From the NCBI RefSeq assembly GCF_024506435.1, contig NZ_JANIET010000001.1, positions 1,736,001-1,800,000 of the forward strand: a stretch of DNA of 64,000 nucleotides, read 5' to 3'. Below, one piece after another: positions 26,900 through 35,076 of the stretch. A program made the position numbers and the translations under genes. The notes below the pieces were generated by a model. That model saw nothing but the letters and a program-made list of their open reading frames with translations. It did not search any database and had not been told where the DNA came from. Source of the stretch: Pantoea trifolii (GTDB lineage Bacteria; Pseudomonadota; Gammaproteobacteria; Enterobacterales; Enterobacteriaceae). Positions within the stretch are counted from its first letter, which is position 1; each line of letters starts with the position of its first letter.

Positions 26900-27003
26900 G
26901 GTTCTCCAGATGTTATTAAGCTGTGGCTGTGTCAGGGCCTGAATATCGCATTGGCATGCGTGTAATTCAAGCGTGAAGCGCTTACTTCGCCACCGGTAGA
27001 TCC
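26900..27003. repeat. Direct repeat copy A, ending in the last bases of umuC
   Basis: GGTTCTCCAGATG through GGTAGATCC. The same block recurs at 27726-27823 with a handful of substitutions and without a 6-base TGCGTG insertion. Its last part, TTACTTCGCCACCGGTAGAT, is identical to the start of the intact umuC end at 33353. The two copies flank the higBA remnant segment. Confidence 0.85.
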
Positions 27004-27111
27004 TCTCAGGGCTTGAGTCTGTGGTACGCTGGGAAAAAGAAAGATTTAGATCTATTTCCTGTCGGGAAACATGTGGTTTAGAAAAACCTGTTTTCATTAA
27101 CGGTCAGGGCT

Positions 27112-27180
27112 GACTGGCGTATCACCTTCGAATTCACCGACGGCGATGCCTATATTCTCAACCTGGAGGACTACCACTGA
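27112..27180 (+). pseudogene. higB: 3' remnant of a higB toxin gene
   Basis: The frame reads DWRITFEFTDGDAYILNLEDYH and a stop at 27178-27180, matching the C-terminal end of HigB/RelE-family mRNA interferases. The sequence before 27112 gives no further HigB residues, so about three quarters of the toxin is missing. Its stop overlaps the higA start by one base, the usual higBA layout. Confidence 0.75.
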
Positions 27181-27497
27181 TGGCAATGTTCAATCCCCCG
27201 CATCCGGGCGGTCTGATCACCGAATACATCGAAGATAACAATGTTGGCTTGCGCGTACTGGCGAAAGAGCTTGGTGTTTCTGCTTCAGCGCTGAGCAAAG
27301 TCGCCAGCGGGAAAGCATCGGTCAGCCCTGAAATGGCGGTGCGGCTCGAGGCGGGGCTGGGTATTGCGGCGCGCCTGTGGCTATCAATGCAGGCTGCATG
27401 CGACCTGCATAAGGCACGAGAAACCACTGACGTTTCCGGTGTAAATCTGCACCCGGGTATGAATGCCGCTTCTGAGGTGAACAGGGCGGCAAAGTAA
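27180..27497 (+). CDS. higA: HigA-type antitoxin (orphaned)
   Basis: 105 residues. The opening NPPHPGGLITEYIE and the helix-turn-helix block VLAKELGVSASALSKVASGKASVSPEMAVRLE are the HigA/VapI signature; HigA binds HigB and represses the operon. The gene looks intact, but only the tail of higB remains upstream, so the usual higBA promoter is gone and expression is uncertain. An orphan antitoxin could still neutralise toxins encoded elsewhere. It lies between two copies of the umuC-end repeat. Confidence 0.88.
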   Translation: MAMFNPPHPGGLITEYIEDNNVGLRVLAKELGVSASALSKVASGKASVSPEMAVRLEAGLGIAARLWLSMQAACDLHKARETTDVSGVNLHPGMNAASEVNRAAK

Positions 27498-27519
27498 CGC
27501 ACCCACGCCAGATACCTGC

Positions 27520-27695
27520 AAAAAACCGCGCTGACTGCCGTAATGCCGCTCAGTTAAGCATTAATTTGCCTATGCATGCAGGTGCGCATGAATGCGCACC
27601 CTACGGAAAACACGCCAATGCTTTGTAGGGTCGCCATTTATGGTGACCGAAAGAAGCTTAACTGACGAGCATTACGCTGACTGGCGCGTTTTTTT
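27520..27695. repeat. Nested inverted-repeat element with two inner palindromes
   Basis: The 40-base left arm (27520-27559) pairs imperfectly with the right arm (27656-27695); shared cores are GTAATG and CAGTTAAGC. Inside are two palindromes, GGTGCGCAT/ATGCGCACC (27581-27600) and GGTCGCCAT/ATGGTGACC (27629-27648), with their GTAGGG flanks facing each other. The right end finishes in a T-run (CGCGTTTTTTT). It fills the gap between higA and direct repeat copy B and shows no coding frame. Confidence 0.75.
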
Positions 27696-27725
27696 GATCT
27701 GCTGAAACATCTTTTCGCCGAACCC

Positions 27726-27823
27726 GGTTCTCCAGATGCTATTAAGCTGTGGTTGTGTCAGGGCCTGAATATCGCATTGGCATAATTCAAGCGTGAAGCG
27801 GTTACTTCGCTACCGGCAGATCC
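27726..27823. repeat. Direct repeat copy B, running into a umuC fragment
   Basis: Second copy of the block at 26900-27003, starting GGTTCTCCAGATG. It continues without a break into a longer umuC 3' fragment on the minus strand. Confidence 0.85.
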
Positions 27824-28112
27824 GCCAGCCGGGTGGTGTACGCCGGGGACAGCATCTCGTGCTTCATCGACCAGGGTTTCTGAATGCCTTGCCCGGCAAA
27901 CCATAGCGCGCCGCGCTGGTGGGCGCTCATCTTGTCGATCAGGGCCATTAATTGGTCACTGTTATGTGTTATGGCGCGGCTGATATTCCGCAAACAGATC
28001 AAACTGCGCCACGCCATCGCTAAAGAAATCGCCCAGCATTACGCCGCCTTTCGTATAACGCTTACCGGGAACCCAGATGCGATCTAAACAGTTGATCTTG
28101 CCCTGAATAATT
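27802..28112 (-). pseudogene. umuC: umuC 3' fragment, frameshifted
   Basis: About 310 bases match the end of the intact umuC gene (33353 onward) with scattered substitutions, ending at the same TAA. A 7-base insertion, GTTATGT repeated near 27961-27974, shifts the frame relative to intact UmuC, so only about the last 50 residues (from [11 protein letters not shown] on) still read correctly. Similarity stops near 28112, where AT-rich island sequence begins. It is a non-functional relic marking one edge of the island. Confidence 0.9.
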
Positions 28113-28704
28113 TTGCCATTGTCAATATTAGGTTGTGATTTTTCGGCTTCAAAATTTTATTAAAATACCATGGTGATCATTTATAAATAAAATATGACGT
28201 TTTCTCATGCTTTTTCCATTCATTGTTAACACCAATATCTTGAGGGTTCATGAAGTATGTGTTTGTTAATTAAATTACATAAAATATCGAAAAATGCGAT
28301 TGTTAATTTGGTTTCATTTTTTTTAGCATTACACGAGCGTTGATGCTCTATATCTCAAGAGTAAACGTATCATAAAAGATTAATGCATTAATCTTAATCT
28401 CTAATGTTTTGGAGTGTGGCTTTAAATAGCTAGTTAACCAATGTCTTTATAAGTACTTATAATTCAATCGATTACAAAATGTTTTGTTTATCATTTCCTT
28501 TTGCTATGCGTTTTTTCATCTTATTGCTGTAAAATTTCTTGACTATTCCGTAAGGTGGATTTTAGTATTTCAGGATGGTTTGTATACTCGTCGTCCATGA
28601 ATGGATCTATATATTCATTACCAATCATCTTTTTTAGATATTTAACTCAAATCATAAAAGTATCAACGCACACAGATTTGTATGATAAAAAATAAGGATT
28701 AGGT
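28113..28704. other. AT-rich non-coding leader of the defence island
   Basis: About 590 bases with base composition clearly more AT-rich than the flanks and no coding frame of note. It begins where the umuC fragment ends and runs to the first defence gene. It contains a candidate promoter near 28539; no attachment site, integrase remnant or tRNA was seen. Confidence 0.6.
28539..28568 (+). promoter_or_regulatory. Candidate sigma-70 promoter of the defence operon
   Basis: TTGACT (28539-28544) lies 17 bases before TTAGTA (28562-28567; TAGTAT with 18-base spacing). The start would be about 130 bases upstream of the first gene. AT-rich DNA yields chance matches, so this is tentative. Confidence 0.35.
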
Positions 28705-30828
28705 ATGAAACTAAGTGAAATTGGTATACGTAATTTCCGACGTCTTGTTGACGTTAAAATTGATATTGAAGAAAAAGAGACTATCTTCGTTGGACCCAAT
28801 AATAGTGGTAAAACAACAGCAACAGCAATATTTAGATGTTTTTTGGGTGGGAGAGAATTCAGTATTTATGACTTTTCGGTAATCCTCATTCCAGAGTTCC
28901 AAAAATTTATTGATTCTAATGGTAGAGAAGATCTTCCAGAAATAAATTTAGATTTGTGGTTTAAAATTGACCCCAGTTCAATAGCTTTTGGACAAGCGTT
29001 TCATTTGCTTGACCGTTATGAAGATCTTAATGAGATCGGAATTCGCCTCTCATTAGTTTTTGAGGAGCCTGCGAAACTTAAAGAAAATTATTTTTCCGCT
29101 TACCCTGAAATTGAAGGTGTTGGCAGGAATAAATCACTCTTTCAATATTTGAATGTCGATAATAACTTTAAAATACACACTGGATTTATTTATCATGCTC
29201 TTTATAAAAGAGGGTCTGAAAGTGGCGGATATGTTGAATCAGAGTTACTAGACTATAAAATTGCTAAGGACATCATTAAAAAATTATTAAAAGTTGAGTT
29301 TGTCGATGCTCAAAGGAATATTAATGATAATGATGATAGCGGTAGCAATCGTCTTTCCTCCGCCTTTGCAACATTTTATAATAAAAATTTAAAAAAAGCA
29401 GATTTATTTGAAGAAGCCCATAAAGTAATTGATGAAAACAACGAAAAGCTGTCATTGCATTACAAGAAGCAATTTAAACCTTTACTAGATCTTATTCGTG
29501 GGCTAGGTGTTCCATCTGCAAGTGAAAGAGAATTAAAAATAATCTCATCTTTGAGTCCTGAAACAGCTTTGAAAGGCAATACCGACCTATTGTACGTGGA
29601 TTCTGTATTAAATCATGAGTTACCTGAGCTTTATAATGGATTAGGTTTTAAGAATTTAATTTATATGGCAATTCAGGCAAGGCATTTTCATTCGCAATGG
29701 ATATCATTGGAAAATAATCGGCCATTTTGTCTATTGATTTTTATTGAAGAACCCGAAGCACATCTTCATGCTCAGGTGCAACAGACTTTTATAAATAACG
29801 TGTGGAAAGTTATTAATGATGCGTCTTTGCAAAATGGTATTACTACCATGGCTCCTCAAGTTATAGTCACTACACACTCAACTCACATTTTAGATTCCGT
29901 TGATTTCGAGAAAGTTCGGTATTTCCAAAGATGTAAAACAGTTGATGTTATTGACAGCAAAATTCTTAATGCTTCATCAGTTCATAGCCTGCGTGCATTC
30001 CGACCGGAAATTGAGTTGCAATTAGAAGAGGATGATCAGGAATTAATTTCTCAAGCTCAGGCTCTTACATTCCTTAAACAATATTTACGACTAACACATT
30101 GCGATCTTTTCTTTTCTGACGCGGCTATTCTTGTTGAAGGTGCCGTTGAAAAATTATTAATGCCTTCTATGATAGATAAGGTTGCTAGCAGATTAGGAAC
30201 AACTTTCCTGACCATTCTTGAGGTGGGGGGGGCTTTTGCACATAGATTCGAAGGATTGTTGAAGTTTTTACATATTCCTTATCTTGTTATCACCGATCTT
30301 GATTCTGTTGAGCCGCAAGGAAGACTTAAAACTTGCCGAGCTGATGTTTTAGGTGCAAGAACCTCAAATGCGTCACTTAAAAGGTTGTGCAAAAAAAATA
30401 CTATCAGTGATCTCATAAATATGAATTATGATGACAAGATTAGTATTGAGCATAATAGATTCATTGCTTTTGGAATGGATGTAAATGTTATTGAAGATGG
30501 ATCAAGCTTATCAATGCGGCCTAGAACTCTTGAAGAGGCAATTGCTTATGAAAATTTCTCACTTCTTCGCTCCGATGAGCTTTACATCGGAATAAAAATC
30601 CCAAAAGATCTTCGTAAGGCATATGATGAAATATATAATCATATTCGCTCAGATAGTTTCAAAAAGACTGACTTTGCAATGAGATTACTTATTAATAAAG
30701 ATTGGGTGGTTCCATCTTACATAACCGAAGGTTTGAAATGGCTGGAAGGGTTTTTATGTCCCACATTAAGTAATGATGAAAGTAATTTTAAATCAACTAT
30801 TAGTGAGACTTCAGAGGCATCTGTATGA
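28705..30828 (+). CDS. gajA: Gabija-like GajA: OLD-family ATPase with TOPRIM nuclease
   Basis: 707 residues. The N-terminal ABC-type ATPase has Walker A GPNNSGKT (30-37) after IGIRNFRRLVDVKI, Walker B LLIFIEEPEAHLHAQ near 345-358 and the histidine loop VTTHSTHIL near 390. The C-terminal TOPRIM nuclease shows the glutamate motif ILVEGAVEKLL near 477 and the metal motif LVITDLDSVEP near 528. In Gabija, GajA is a nucleotide-sensing DNA-nicking enzyme that assembles with GajB to block phage. This one is longer than the Bacillus cereus prototype (about 580). It overlaps the helicase gene by 4 bases. The composition is AT-rich and unlike its neighbours, so acquisition is likely. Confidence 0.85.
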   Translation: MKLSEIGIRNFRRLVDVKIDIEEKETIFVGPNNSGKTTATAIFRCFLGGREFSIYDFSVILIPEFQKFIDSNGREDLPEINLDLWFKIDPSSIAFGQAFHLLDRYEDLNEIGIRLSLVFEEPAKLKENYFSAYPEIEGVGRNKSLFQYLNVDNNFKIHTGFIYHALYKRGSESGGYVESELLDYKIAKDIIKKLLKVEFVDAQRNINDNDDSGSNRLSSAFATFYNKNLKKADLFEEAHKVIDENNEKLSLHYKKQFKPLLDLIRGLGVPSASERELKIISSLSPETALKGNTDLLYVDSVLNHELPELYNGLGFKNLIYMAIQARHFHSQWISLENNRPFCLLIFIEEPEAHLHAQVQQTFINNVWKVINDASLQNGITTMAPQVIVTTHSTHILDSVDFEKVRYFQRCKTVDVIDSKILNASSVHSLRAFRPEIELQLEEDDQELISQAQALTFLKQYLRLTHCDLFFSDAAILVEGAVEKLLMPSMIDKVASRLGTTFLTILEVGGAFAHRFEGLLKFLHIPYLVITDLDSVEPQGRLKTCRADVLGARTSNASLKRLCKKNTISDLINMNYDDKISIEHNRFIAFGMDVNVIEDGSSLSMRPRTLEEAIAYENFSLLRSDELYIGIKIPKDLRKAYDEIYNHIRSDSFKKTDFAMRLLINKDWVVPSYITEGLKWLEGFLCPTLSNDESNFKSTISETSEASV

Positions 30829-32663
30829 TTGATTATAGAGTTACTGAAGCAGAGATAAGAATAGAAGATTGCTTAAATAAAAATATTAGCTTTGCAGTTA
30901 TTGCAGGTGCAGGATCAGGGAAGACTAGCTTACTTATTAAAACATTAAAGTCTGTACTCCATAAAGAAGGACGAAAATTACGACAAAATGGACAAAAGAT
31001 TGCCTGTATAACCTTTACTAAAAGAGCTGTAAACGTAATAAAAAAACGTCTTGAGTTTGATGATGTTTTCGAAGTCAGTACATTGCATAGCTTTTTATGG
31101 GCTCAACTTTCTGGTTTTAATCATGACATAAGAAAGTCATTAATTAATTTCCGGCTTCCTCTTTTAATTGAAAAAGAGAAGGGTAAAGATAATGGAGGGA
31201 AGAGTAAGTCAGCTTTAGCAGCTCGTAACAAGGCAGAGCTTATTCAGAGGGAGTTAGATGCATTACACACTGTATCTTCCTTCCATTACAGTGATTCAAA
31301 CTATGGAAATTATCTTGAAGGTAAGCTTGGTCATGATGATATTATTTCAATCGCAGTATATCTCTTAAATAATAACGTAACTTTTAGAAAAATTCTTGGG
31401 TTACGTTATCCGTATATCTTTATCGATGAAGCACAAGATACTAATGGAGATATTCTGGCTGGCTTTAATTTATTAGGTGATGGGAATTGTTTACCCTTGA
31501 CTGGATATTTTGGCGATCCTTGGCAACAAATATATGATGGCAGTATAGGTGATTTTTTCCCTCCCAAAAATGGTGAGATAATAAAGAAAGATGAAAACTT
31601 TAGATGTTCAATAAGTGTAATAAAACTACTTAATGCTTTTCGTAAAGACCTTTGTCAATATCCTGCAGGGGAAAATTCTGAACGTGAAGGGAGTGTTGTT
31701 TTTCATCTAATTAAAGCAGAAGTTCCTGAACTTCCAAGAAACCAATATTCAGAAGAACAAATATCACGTGCTCTATCGAAAATGGATAAGGCACTTATGA
31801 ATTGGGCGTGGGACAAAGAAGATAATGTAATGCGTTTGTTTTTAGTCAGGCAAATGATCGCTAGGCGTTTAGGGTTTCCTACTATTAATAAACTATTTAC
31901 TGGAGGTTATTCATCAATACGTTCTCAGGAGCTATTTGAATCAGGGGAACATTATTTATTACATCCATTAATCTCATTAATCTGCCCTTTGATCATATCA
32001 CACCAAAAAGGAGATAAGAGGAAGGTGTTATCTGTTCTGCAAAGTAATTGTCCTTTCTTTAACTCCGAAGGACCAAATGCTACAAAATCCTTACAGTCAA
32101 TTATTGATTTGTCAGTTTCTTTCGTAGAGCAGTTATATAAAATTTGGTGTGAAGGGACAATCAGAGATATTCTACAATTCTGTATGGAAAATCAACTTAT
32201 TGAAATAAGTGATCTTTTACAGTCCCATTTACTAAGAAATCCTCGAACAGAAATTTTTGACCCTGAAGTTCATGGTATTGAAAAGAATGACTGGCTAACT
32301 GACTCACTTTTCTCCATGGACACAAAAGAGTTGATGGCTTATTATCATTTCATATCACAAAATACTCCTTATAGTACCCAGCATGGAGTTAAAGGTGAAG
32401 AGTATAAAAAAGTTTTAGTTGTTTATGATGATGTTGAGGCTAGCTGGAATAACTATAATTTTGGGAAGATTTTAACGCCCGGATTATCGGGTCATCCCAC
32501 TGAGGGACAACTCAACCGAGGAAGGAAATTAGCATATGTGTCTTTTTCTCGAGCCCTAGATGACTTACGAGTAATTTTATTCACGCCAGATCCTGAAGAA
32601 GCTAAGAATGAGTTATTAGGTTCGGGACTACTTTGTCCAGATCAAGTGGAGTTAGGTGATTGA
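30825..32663 (+). CDS. gajB: Gabija-like GajB: UvrD/PcrA-type superfamily 1 helicase
   Basis: 612 residues. SF1 helicase motifs appear in order: Walker A AGAGSGKTS (28-36), TFTKRAV (Ia), IFIDEAQDTN (motif II, near 200), GYFGDPWQQIYDG (III), DENFRCS (IV), QHGVKGEEYKKVLVV (V) and YVSFSRALDDLRV (VI). All catalytic motifs look intact. Overlap with the OLD-family gene (ATGA) indicates coupled synthesis, the defining Gabija arrangement of a class 2 OLD nuclease with a UvrD-like partner. It is longer than the prototype GajB (about 490). Related OLD/helicase pairs outside Gabija cannot be excluded without a search. Confidence 0.85.
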   Translation: MIDYRVTEAEIRIEDCLNKNISFAVIAGAGSGKTSLLIKTLKSVLHKEGRKLRQNGQKIACITFTKRAVNVIKKRLEFDDVFEVSTLHSFLWAQLSGFNHDIRKSLINFRLPLLIEKEKGKDNGGKSKSALAARNKAELIQRELDALHTVSSFHYSDSNYGNYLEGKLGHDDIISIAVYLLNNNVTFRKILGLRYPYIFIDEAQDTNGDILAGFNLLGDGNCLPLTGYFGDPWQQIYDGSIGDFFPPKNGEIIKKDENFRCSISVIKLLNAFRKDLCQYPAGENSEREGSVVFHLIKAEVPELPRNQYSEEQISRALSKMDKALMNWAWDKEDNVMRLFLVRQMIARRLGFPTINKLFTGGYSSIRSQELFESGEHYLLHPLISLICPLIISHQKGDKRKVLSVLQSNCPFFNSEGPNATKSLQSIIDLSVSFVEQLYKIWCEGTIRDILQFCMENQLIEISDLLQSHLLRNPRTEIFDPEVHGIEKNDWLTDSLFSMDTKELMAYYHFISQNTPYSTQHGVKGEEYKKVLVVYDDVEASWNNYNFGKILTPGLSGHPTEGQLNRGRKLAYVSFSRALDDLRVILFTPDPEEAKNELLGSGLLCPDQVELGD

Positions 32664-32743
32664 TTGTATGATTTTTAATGTTTTTGTTTCTTGCTAGCAT
32701 TTTCATAAAGGGTTGTTTATATATATTGTCAATAGGTGTTTTG

Positions 32744-32968
32744 ATGAGTTCAGGACTGTATTGGATATCTGGTAATTATATATATGGGCCAAAGGAATCA
32801 GGTAAATTTTGGATTTCTAATGGTTACATTTATGGGCCTAAAAATTCGGGGAAGTATTGGATCTCTGATAATTATATTTATGGCCCGAAGCATAGTGGGA
32901 AGTTTTGGATAAGTGGGGGGTATATTTATGGACCTTCAGGTATCAATTTACCTTGGTTGGAGGGCTGA
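32744..32968 (+). CDS. Tiny four-repeat protein, 4-fold beta-flower type
   Basis: 74 residues from the ATG at 32744. It is built almost entirely from four 16-residue repeats with consensus G-K-[FY]-W-I-S-x-x-Y-I-Y-G-P-K-x-S, starting GLYWISGNYIYGPKES. This matches the pattern of the predicted 4-fold beta-flower proteins, a small repeat fold of unknown function. AGGTG lies 5 bases before this ATG. An in-frame ATG at 32678 would add 22 hydrophobic residues (FLFLASIFIKGCLYILSIGV), a possible membrane anchor, but has no ribosome site. It is placed 80 bases after gajB and before a strong terminator, so it should be the third gene of the defence operon. Confidence 0.75.
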   Translation: MSSGLYWISGNYIYGPKESGKFWISNGYIYGPKNSGKYWISDNYIYGPKHSGKFWISGGYIYGPSGINLPWLEG

Positions 32969-33029
32969 GAGTAAAGGCGCTAAGTGAAAATTCAGTATAG
33001 AACGTACCTATGAACCTTCTGAGCAAACT

Positions 33030-33064
33030 AATGGTGATAATGAAAATCCATTATCACCATTTTT
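33030..33064 (+). terminator. Strong rho-independent terminator of the defence operon
   Basis: AATGGTGATAATG (33030-33042) pairs perfectly over 13 bases with CATTATCACCATT (33049-33061) around AAAATC and runs into TTTT. It ends the gajA-gajB-flower transcript. Confidence 0.85.
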
Positions 33065-33352
33065 CGATACTTGCATTTTTTCAAACTAACGAAAAAATAT
33101 TTTATTAATTATATACACTTTAAATTATTTTTATTTATTTAATGATATTATATTTCTAGTAAGGAAACGTTCTAAAATATTTTCTACGCTATAAAATTAT
33201 GCTGGGGAATTTAATAGGACTGTCAAATTTCACGCAGTTAGAACGCCTATACTGAATTTATTAGGATAAAGATACTGTATCGTGTGATAAATGCTAGCCC
33301 ACCGGTGGATTCATTCTTTCATATCTCGAAATATTTAGATAAGTGGAGGGAC
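33065..33352. other. AT-rich right flank of the defence island
   Basis: No coding frame. The DNA stays AT-rich until a few bases before the umuC stop. CCACCGGTGGAT at 33299-33310 repeats, with one mismatch, the CCACCGGTAGAT found inside the umuC end (33361-33372) and in repeat copy A (26990-27001), and could be a recombination core. Confidence 0.5.
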
Positions 33353-34615
33353 TTACTTCGCCACCGGTAGATCCGCCAGCCGGGTGGTGTACGCCGGTGA
33401 CAGCATATCGCGCTTCATCGACCAGGGTTTCTGAATCCCCTGGCCAGCAAACCATAGCGCGCCGCGCTGGTGGGCATTCATCTTATCGATCAGGGCCATC
33501 AGTTGGTCACTATTATGACGCGGCTGATATTCCGCAAACAGATCAAGCTGCGCCACGCCATCGCTAAAGAAATCGCCCAACATCACGCCGCCTTTCATAT
33601 AACGCTTACCGGGAACCCAGATACGATCTAAACAATTAAGCGTGGCCTGAATAATATCGCGACTGTCAGCGGTGGGCGTAATCAAGGTTTGACTGGCCGC
33701 ATTGGCGTAATAAGGATGATGCGCATCGTGCGGGCTGGTGCGAATAAACGTCCCGATATGACGGCAATATTGCCGCTCGCTGCGCAGCTTCTCTGCGGCG
33801 CGCGCGGCGTAATTGGCGATGGCTTCGCGCATATCCTGATATTCGGTAATACGATCGCCAAACGAGCGCGAGCAGAGAATATTTTGTCGGTTGGGAACCA
33901 CCTCCTCAAACGCCAGACAAGACTCGCCACATAATTCACGTACCGTGCGCTCCAGCACCACGCCGAAGTGTTTCCGGATCAGCGCGGTTGGGGTTTCCGC
34001 TAATTCCAGCGCGGTGTTGATCCCCATCAGGTTGAGCTTTTTCGATAAGCGCCGGCCCACGCCCCACACCTCTTCAACCTTGACGAGTTTCATCAACTCG
34101 CGCTGACGGTGGGGCAAAGAGAGATCCATCACGTTCTCGGCTTTGGTCCAGCGTTTGGCCGCCCAGTTGGCGAGTTTGGCGAGGGTTTTGGTCGGTGCAA
34201 TGCCGACACCCACGCGCAGATGGGTGTCCTGATAAATGCGGTCGCGGATATCGCAGCCTAACTGTTCAAACGTCATGCAGGCATTGATGCCGGTAACATC
34301 AACGAAGGCTTCGTCAATGGAATACTCATCCACACGCGTGGATATCAGCGCCAGCGTCTCCATCACGCGGCGCGACATATCGCCATACAACGCATAGTTA
34401 GACGAGAACACCACCACTTTGTGACGCATCAGCTCTTCGCGATGTTTGAAGTAGGGCGCGCCCATCTTGATGCCCAGCGCCTTGGCTTCTCTGCTCAGGG
34501 AAATAATGCAGCCGTCGTTATTCGACAGCACCACAATCGGTTTGCCACGCAGATCCGGGCGAAACACCGTTTCACAGCTGGCGTAAAACGAGTTCACATC
34601 CACCAGGGCAAACAT
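33353..34615 (-). CDS. umuC: DNA polymerase V catalytic subunit UmuC
   Basis: 420 residues, the usual length of UmuC. The Y-family polymerase motifs [14 protein letters not shown] at the N-terminus and [10 protein letters not shown] for the second metal site are present. The palm and little-finger regions continue to the C-terminus [15 protein letters not shown]. With two UmuD' subunits and RecA it performs error-prone translesion synthesis. It starts at the last base of umuD (1-base overlap), the standard umuDC operon. Its 3' end has been copied twice further left (27802-28112 and the end of 26900-27003), making it the anchor of the accessory region. Confidence 0.96.
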
Positions 34616-35056: not shown

Positions 35057-35076
35057 TACTGTATGTGTATACAGTA
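35057..35076 (-). promoter_or_regulatory. LexA (SOS) operator of umuDC
   Basis: TACTGTATGTGTATACAGTA contains CTGT-N8-ACAG with the flanking TA bases, a near-perfect LexA box 20-40 bases before the umuD start. Confidence 0.93.

What the first reader, a model, noticed from the sequence alone, without database searches (positions are those of the whole stretch)
28539..33064. Gabija-like defence pair with a third co-transcribed gene
An OLD-family ATPase/TOPRIM gene and a UvrD-like helicase gene overlap by 4 bases, the Gabija layout. A tiny repeat-protein gene follows 80 bases later, before the only strong terminator. All catalytic motifs of both large proteins look intact. Both proteins are about 100 residues longer than the prototype. 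A three-gene version could have a different sensor, regulator or anti-escape partner.
Basis: partly seen in the sequence, partly recalled or inferred. Interest (0 to 1): 0.85.

Follow-up and report, generated by a model that had tools for sequence, protein, structure and literature searches.

The report
Gabija pair beside a phage-borne gene
This stretch holds an ordinary two-gene Gabija anti-phage system inside a small foreign DNA island, and the tiny third gene behind it looks like a separately travelling phage accessory gene rather than a built-in part of the system.

Summary
In detail: gajA (28705-30828, 707 aa) and gajB (30825-32663, 612 aa) overlap by 4 bases, and a four-repeat ORF follows without an intervening terminator, ending before a strong hairpin (33030-33061). 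The pair is Gabija by every test that could be run: near full-length PADLOC GajA/GajB matches (E 1e-189, 2e-163), Walker and Toprim residues intact, GajA-like fold. The extra length is normal among its relatives.

The "three-gene version" is not supported. None of 38 relatives (52-63% identical GajA) carries the small gene, and other pairs are followed by different genes. The two nearest (85-88%) stand beside P2-type phage genes; nucleotide homology starts exactly at ATG 32744.

The small protein is real (saturated silent changes, few amino-acid changes), has no Pfam family, and is modelled as four beta hairpins. It is most likely a phage accessory gene captured beside Gabija.

All lies in a 6.3-kb island at the 3' end of umuC, bounded by an exact 23-bp repeat and absent from the five genomes with the most similar umuC.

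The parts
28705..30828 (+). gajA, 707 aa: OLD-type ABC ATPase plus Toprim nuclease
30825..32663 (+). gajB, 612 aa: UvrD-like helicase, overlaps gajA by 4 bases
   Evidence: PADLOC GajB PDLC00143 E 1.8e-163, residues 3-610, model 6-629 of 632; Pfam UvrD-helicase; GDPWQQIY identical in 20 of 20 rows
32744..32968 (+). small gene, 74 aa, four repeats of about 16 residues (S-G-x-Y/F-W-I-S-x-x-Y-I-Y-G-P-K like); the frame is open from 32678 but homology begins here
   Evidence: relatives 85-88% identical in viral contigs; pS 0.78 against pN 0.12 to L055; AlphaFold2 pLDDT 89, four beta hairpins
33030..33061 (.). 13-bp perfect hairpin with a short T tail on the + strand, likely terminator
   Evidence: -18.1 kcal/mol for the 56-nt stretch, z -5.9
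27004..33351 (.). 6.3-kb island at the 3' end of umuC (27004-27725 with an HTH ORF; 27726-28124 copy of a umuC 3' junction; 28125-33351 low-GC gajA-gajB-small segment)
   Evidence: absent from the five genomes with the most similar umuC; GC 0.25-0.38 in the parts of the gajAB segment, mostly 0.5 or more around it
26981..27003 (.). left copy of the exact 23-bp direct repeat bounding the island
   Evidence: only two exact copies in the window
33352..33374 (.). right copy of the 23-bp repeat, spanning the umuC stop codon
27726..28124 (-). second copy of the junction downstream of umuC plus about 300 bp of umuC tail; its umuC part is 89% identical to the host's own, so probably from a related species
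33353..34615 (-). intact umuC (site of the island), convergent with gajAB

Best explanation
A complete, intact Gabija anti-phage system of a long-form group, carried in a horizontally acquired 6.3-kb island at the 3' end of umuC, with one unrelated passenger gene behind it. Inferred working, from studies of other Gabija systems: GajA tetramers braced by GajB form a complex whose ATPase and helicase parts control a Toprim nuclease; it attacks invading DNA, reportedly linear DNA ends not held by RecBCD, and stops phage genome circularisation. The small gene encodes a compact four-hairpin repeat protein that travels independently, mostly in phage-like DNA, and here was captured between gajB and the terminator. 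It may be co-transcribed, but it is probably not a Gabija component. Shown: gene content, homology, intact residues, island boundaries, separate distribution of the small gene. Inferred: activity, co-transcription, and that the small gene acts on its own.
For: GajA/GajB models matched over almost full length. Catalytic residues invariant with 21 GajA relatives, and helicase motif cores with 19 GajB relatives, out of the 38 found. GajA model: solved GajA entries rank first and second with VIA-align and fill the first four Foldseek ranks. 37 of 38 relatives have a gajB match behind gajA; the exception lies at a contig end. Small gene: 0 of 38 relatives; only the own genome among 61 of its genus and 392 of its family; the own and one other among 398 of the phylum. 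Its relatives lie near Ogr, GPD, portal, GPA or AbiGi genes, and 0 of 8 stretches contain gajA or gajB. Different co-directional genes follow other pairs: 4 of the 4 plasmid loci opened, and two different shared genes among the 38. Island missing in 5 of 5 nearest genomes.
Confidence: 0.85

Rival explanations
1. A true three-gene Gabija variant: the four-hairpin protein binds GajAB as sensor, brake or anti-escape subunit.
For: Same strand, 80 bp behind gajB, no terminator between, shared strong hairpin; protein under purifying selection in its family; composition partly like gajAB.
Against: 0 of 38 relatives carry it; its relatives occur without gajAB in 8 of 8 stretches; close co-directional genes behind gajB also occur elsewhere and are of varied kinds.
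Confidence: 0.08
2. A refinement of the best explanation rather than its opposite: the small gene is itself a stand-alone defence or anti-defence gene of phages that was added to a defence locus and acts beside Gabija, not in it.
For: In L056 it stands between a phage GPD-type gene and a host permease gene; an AbiGi-like gene (23.5 bits, cut-off 22.4) starts 105 bp behind it in L057; a SEFIR-domain gene lies on the same contig in L055.
Against: No tested member; in L047 and L100 it lies by phage structural genes; on a Paracoccus plasmid the repeats end a protein with a lipoprotein-like start, which fits a surface role better.
Confidence: 0.3
3. The two large proteins form a DNA-repair OLD/helicase pair without a defence role.
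For: Pfam names only general domains; NCBIfam gives weak matches to Rep, PcrA and RecF among others.
Against: The NCBIfam repair equivalogs fall far below their cut-offs (Rep 40.9 against 951 bits, RecF 19.9 against 172); PADLOC GajA and GajB models match at 631 and 543 bits, though PADLOC holds defence models only; patchy distribution in the genus and an empty site in sister genomes.
Confidence: 0.04
4. The small ORF is not a gene but a chance repeat.
For: Short, repetitive, no Pfam hit.
Against: 85-88% identical proteins in viral contigs, with 34 of about 54 changes silent although silent sites are a fifth of all sites; confident compact fold.
Confidence: 0.02

Closest known systems
Gabija (GajA-GajB; Bacillus cereus VD045 prototype, P. 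aeruginosa PA14)
   Same: OLD-type ATPase-Toprim nuclease plus UvrD-like helicase in one gene pair; active-site residues and fold
   Different: About 110-130 residues longer in each protein than the solved prototype (a trait of the relatives too); low sequence identity to it; an extra small gene follows
Retron-Eco8 effector and PtuA (OLD/ABC-Toprim relatives)
   Different: A helicase partner is encoded here; NCBIfam scores for both far below cut-offs; Rfam found no known RNA family in the window
4-fold beta flower protein (Pfam PF21784, Bflower)
   Same: Idea of four beta units; one of 7 family members matches weakly (E 0.077)
   Different: The window protein does not match; profile comparison with one Bflower protein gave probability 0.1
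Accessory (moron) genes of P2-like prophages
   Same: Nearest relatives of the small gene lie beside GPD- and Ogr-type genes
   Different: No phage gene was recognised in the window island; only the coding part is shared

Membership tests
Gabija | GajA: ABC-type ATPase followed by an OLD-type Toprim domain | tested here: met
Gabija | Toprim active site: invariant Glu, Gly and DxD (E379, G409, D432, D434 in the prototype; PMC10781630 passages) | tested here: met
   E478, G508/G509, D531, D533, invariant in 22 of 22 rows; correspondence by motif, not by a residue-level structure alignment
Gabija | GajB: UvrD-like helicase with Walker A and DEXQD box, encoded next to gajA | tested here: met
   GAGSGKT at 28-34, DEAQD at 201-205, 4-base overlap
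Gabija | Better match to Gabija models than to repair or other defence models | tested here: met
   the first eight PADLOC models for P0001 and the first eleven for P0002 are Gaj models; repair models below cut-off
Gabija | GajA-GajB 4:4 complex | not testable with these tools
   needs expression and purification
Gabija | Protection from phages | not testable with these tools
   needs a plaque assay
Three-gene Gabija variant | Small gene recurs with homologous pairs | tested here: not met
   0 of 38; 0 of 8 in the reverse direction
4-fold beta flower (PF21784) | Match to the Pfam model above its cut-off | tested here: not met
4-fold beta flower (PF21784) | Four-fold beta architecture | tested here: inconclusive
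   four beta hairpins modelled; no solved structure close enough to compare

The most novel reading that the evidence does not exclude
The four-hairpin protein is a small phage-encoded counter to Gabija-type nucleases that prophages carry, and that this locus has recruited as a built-in brake on its own GajAB.
Probability: 0.06. Interest if true: 0.75.

Novelty: new member of a known kind. Interest (0 to 1): 0.27.

Why it matters
As a Gabija system it adds one more long-form member. The by-product is a small family of mostly phage-borne proteins with no Pfam model, conserved at the protein level and modelled as a compact four-hairpin fold; whether it helps or hinders defence is easy to test. 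The umuC 3' end of this genome has taken up defence cargo, with empty sites in sister genomes.

Tried and rejected

Papers: PMC10781630 passages; PMC12407980 abstract, outline and passages; PMC4458695 passages; all others in search listings only.

Full report
Observation. The layout is as described. gajA (28705-30828) and gajB (30825-32663) overlap by 4 bases. A repeat ORF follows; it is open from 32678, but nucleotide similarity to its two nearest relatives starts exactly at ATG 32744 and ends at 32958-32959, so the gene is taken as 32744-32968 (74 aa), 80 bases behind gajB. The hairpin at 33030-33061 is far more stable than shuffles (z -5.9), and the gajB-small gap has no such structure (z 0.2). 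Promoter-like matches are at chance level.

The small gene. The small protein is absent from all 38 relatives; 32 of the 34 with a complete gajB have at least 500 bp downstream. Profile searches found only the own genome among 61 of the genus and 392 of the family, and one further genome, G534, among 398 of the phylum. Relatives came from IMG/VR viral contigs (L055 88%, L056 85%, L057 71%, L100 58%, L047 57%, L101 57% with three repeats), a Paracoccus plasmid where the repeats form the end of a longer protein with a lipoprotein-like start (the lipobox reading is mine), and G534 (42%). No gajA or gajB match exists in any of these 8 stretches, 8.6 to 19 kb long. In L055 the gene stands after a GPD remnant and an Ogr gene, near the contig end; in L056 after a GPD-like ORF (23.1 bits, below the cut-off of 30.1) and before a permease gene that I take for the host's, with no Ogr ORF of 40 aa or more found; in L057 on a contig with Ogr and GPA genes, with an AbiGi-like gene 105 bp behind; in L100 on the strand opposite to a portal gene and next to it, in L047 likewise with one gene between. 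'P2-like' is my inference from the Ogr, GPD and GPA families. Between the window gene and L055 about 34 of 54 changes are silent although silent sites are only a fifth of all (pS 0.78, saturated; pN 0.12): the protein is under selection. AlphaFold2 gives a confident fold of four beta hairpins (pLDDT 89, five sequences), with no close solved or viral match and no Pfam family.

What follows other pairs. Closely following co-directional genes occur but differ: two of the 38 share one gene at +45 bp and another two share a different gene at +224 bp. In four plasmid loci that I chose from the 30 listed of 79 matching records (GajA 49, 35, 27 and 27% identical), the next gene is annotated as a DNA repair exonuclease, a hypothetical protein, a DNA methyltransferase and a Fic protein, each starting 47-108 bp after the gajB stop. 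A third gene behind gajB is therefore nothing unusual and no mark of a new variant.

Surroundings. The stretch 27004-33351 is missing in the five genomes with the most similar full-length umuC (95-99% protein identity): in L090 and L091 the two flanks meet directly, and in L092-L094 the aligned flanks (ending at window 26971 and starting at 33353-33354) lie 123-127 bp apart. Three more distant genomes (L095-L097) matched only in umuC; 8 of the 60 other genus members were fetched. The island is bounded by an exact 23-bp direct repeat that includes the umuC stop codon (26981-27003 and 33352-33374), with a third copy of 3 mismatches at 27801. Inside lies a 399-bp copy of a umuC junction whose umuC part is 89% identical to the host's own, so it probably came from a related species. 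No integrase was recognised among the ORFs of 100 aa or more in the island (by eye). GC falls from mostly above 0.5 to 0.25-0.38 in the gajAB segment. Islands at umuC are known in Pantoea and Erwinia elements, but there they interrupt the gene (PMC4458695, passages). The host is an unnamed 5.06-Mb genome; its third contig resembles Pantoea and Rahnella plasmids in part.

How it works. By analogy with studied systems (PMC10781630 passages; PMC12407980 abstract), GajAB should form a ring complex and cut invading DNA, with preference for ends not protected by RecBCD. Nothing here tests that. The role of the small protein is open; its distribution argues for a separate function.

Verdict. Gabija: yes. 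A three-gene Gabija: not supported. Novelty: a new member of a known kind, with a small unnamed, mostly phage-borne protein family as the point worth a bench test. The boldest reading not excluded is that this protein is a phage counter to Gabija-type nucleases taken over as a brake; nothing here speaks for it beyond its presence in both places.

Noticed in passing
26981-33374: The 3' end of umuC holds an island bounded by an exact 23-bp repeat, with an inner foreign copy of the umuC junction; sister genomes show the empty site.
   Followed up: partly
27180-27497: A lone helix-turn-helix ORF (105 aa, HTH_3; HigA-like by eye) without a recognised partner toxin in the first segment of the island.
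   Followed up: no
L050, L051 (genomes G395, G358): Two genomes of the same genus carry a different GajA (31% identical) with a GajB-like ORF next to it, elsewhere.
   Followed up: no
L008 10992 and L015 10992; L030 8128 and L032 11171: Two different genes are each shared behind gajB by two relatives, at +45 bp (89% identical) and +224 bp (94%).
   Followed up: partly
L046 7578-8219: A Paracoccus plasmid protein with a lipoprotein-like start ends in the same four repeats.
   Followed up: partly
L055 3868-5301: A SEFIR/TIR-domain gene on the viral contig that carries the nearest relative of the small gene.
   Followed up: partly
35059-35074: A perfect LexA-type box (recalled consensus) upstream of umuD.
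   Followed up: no
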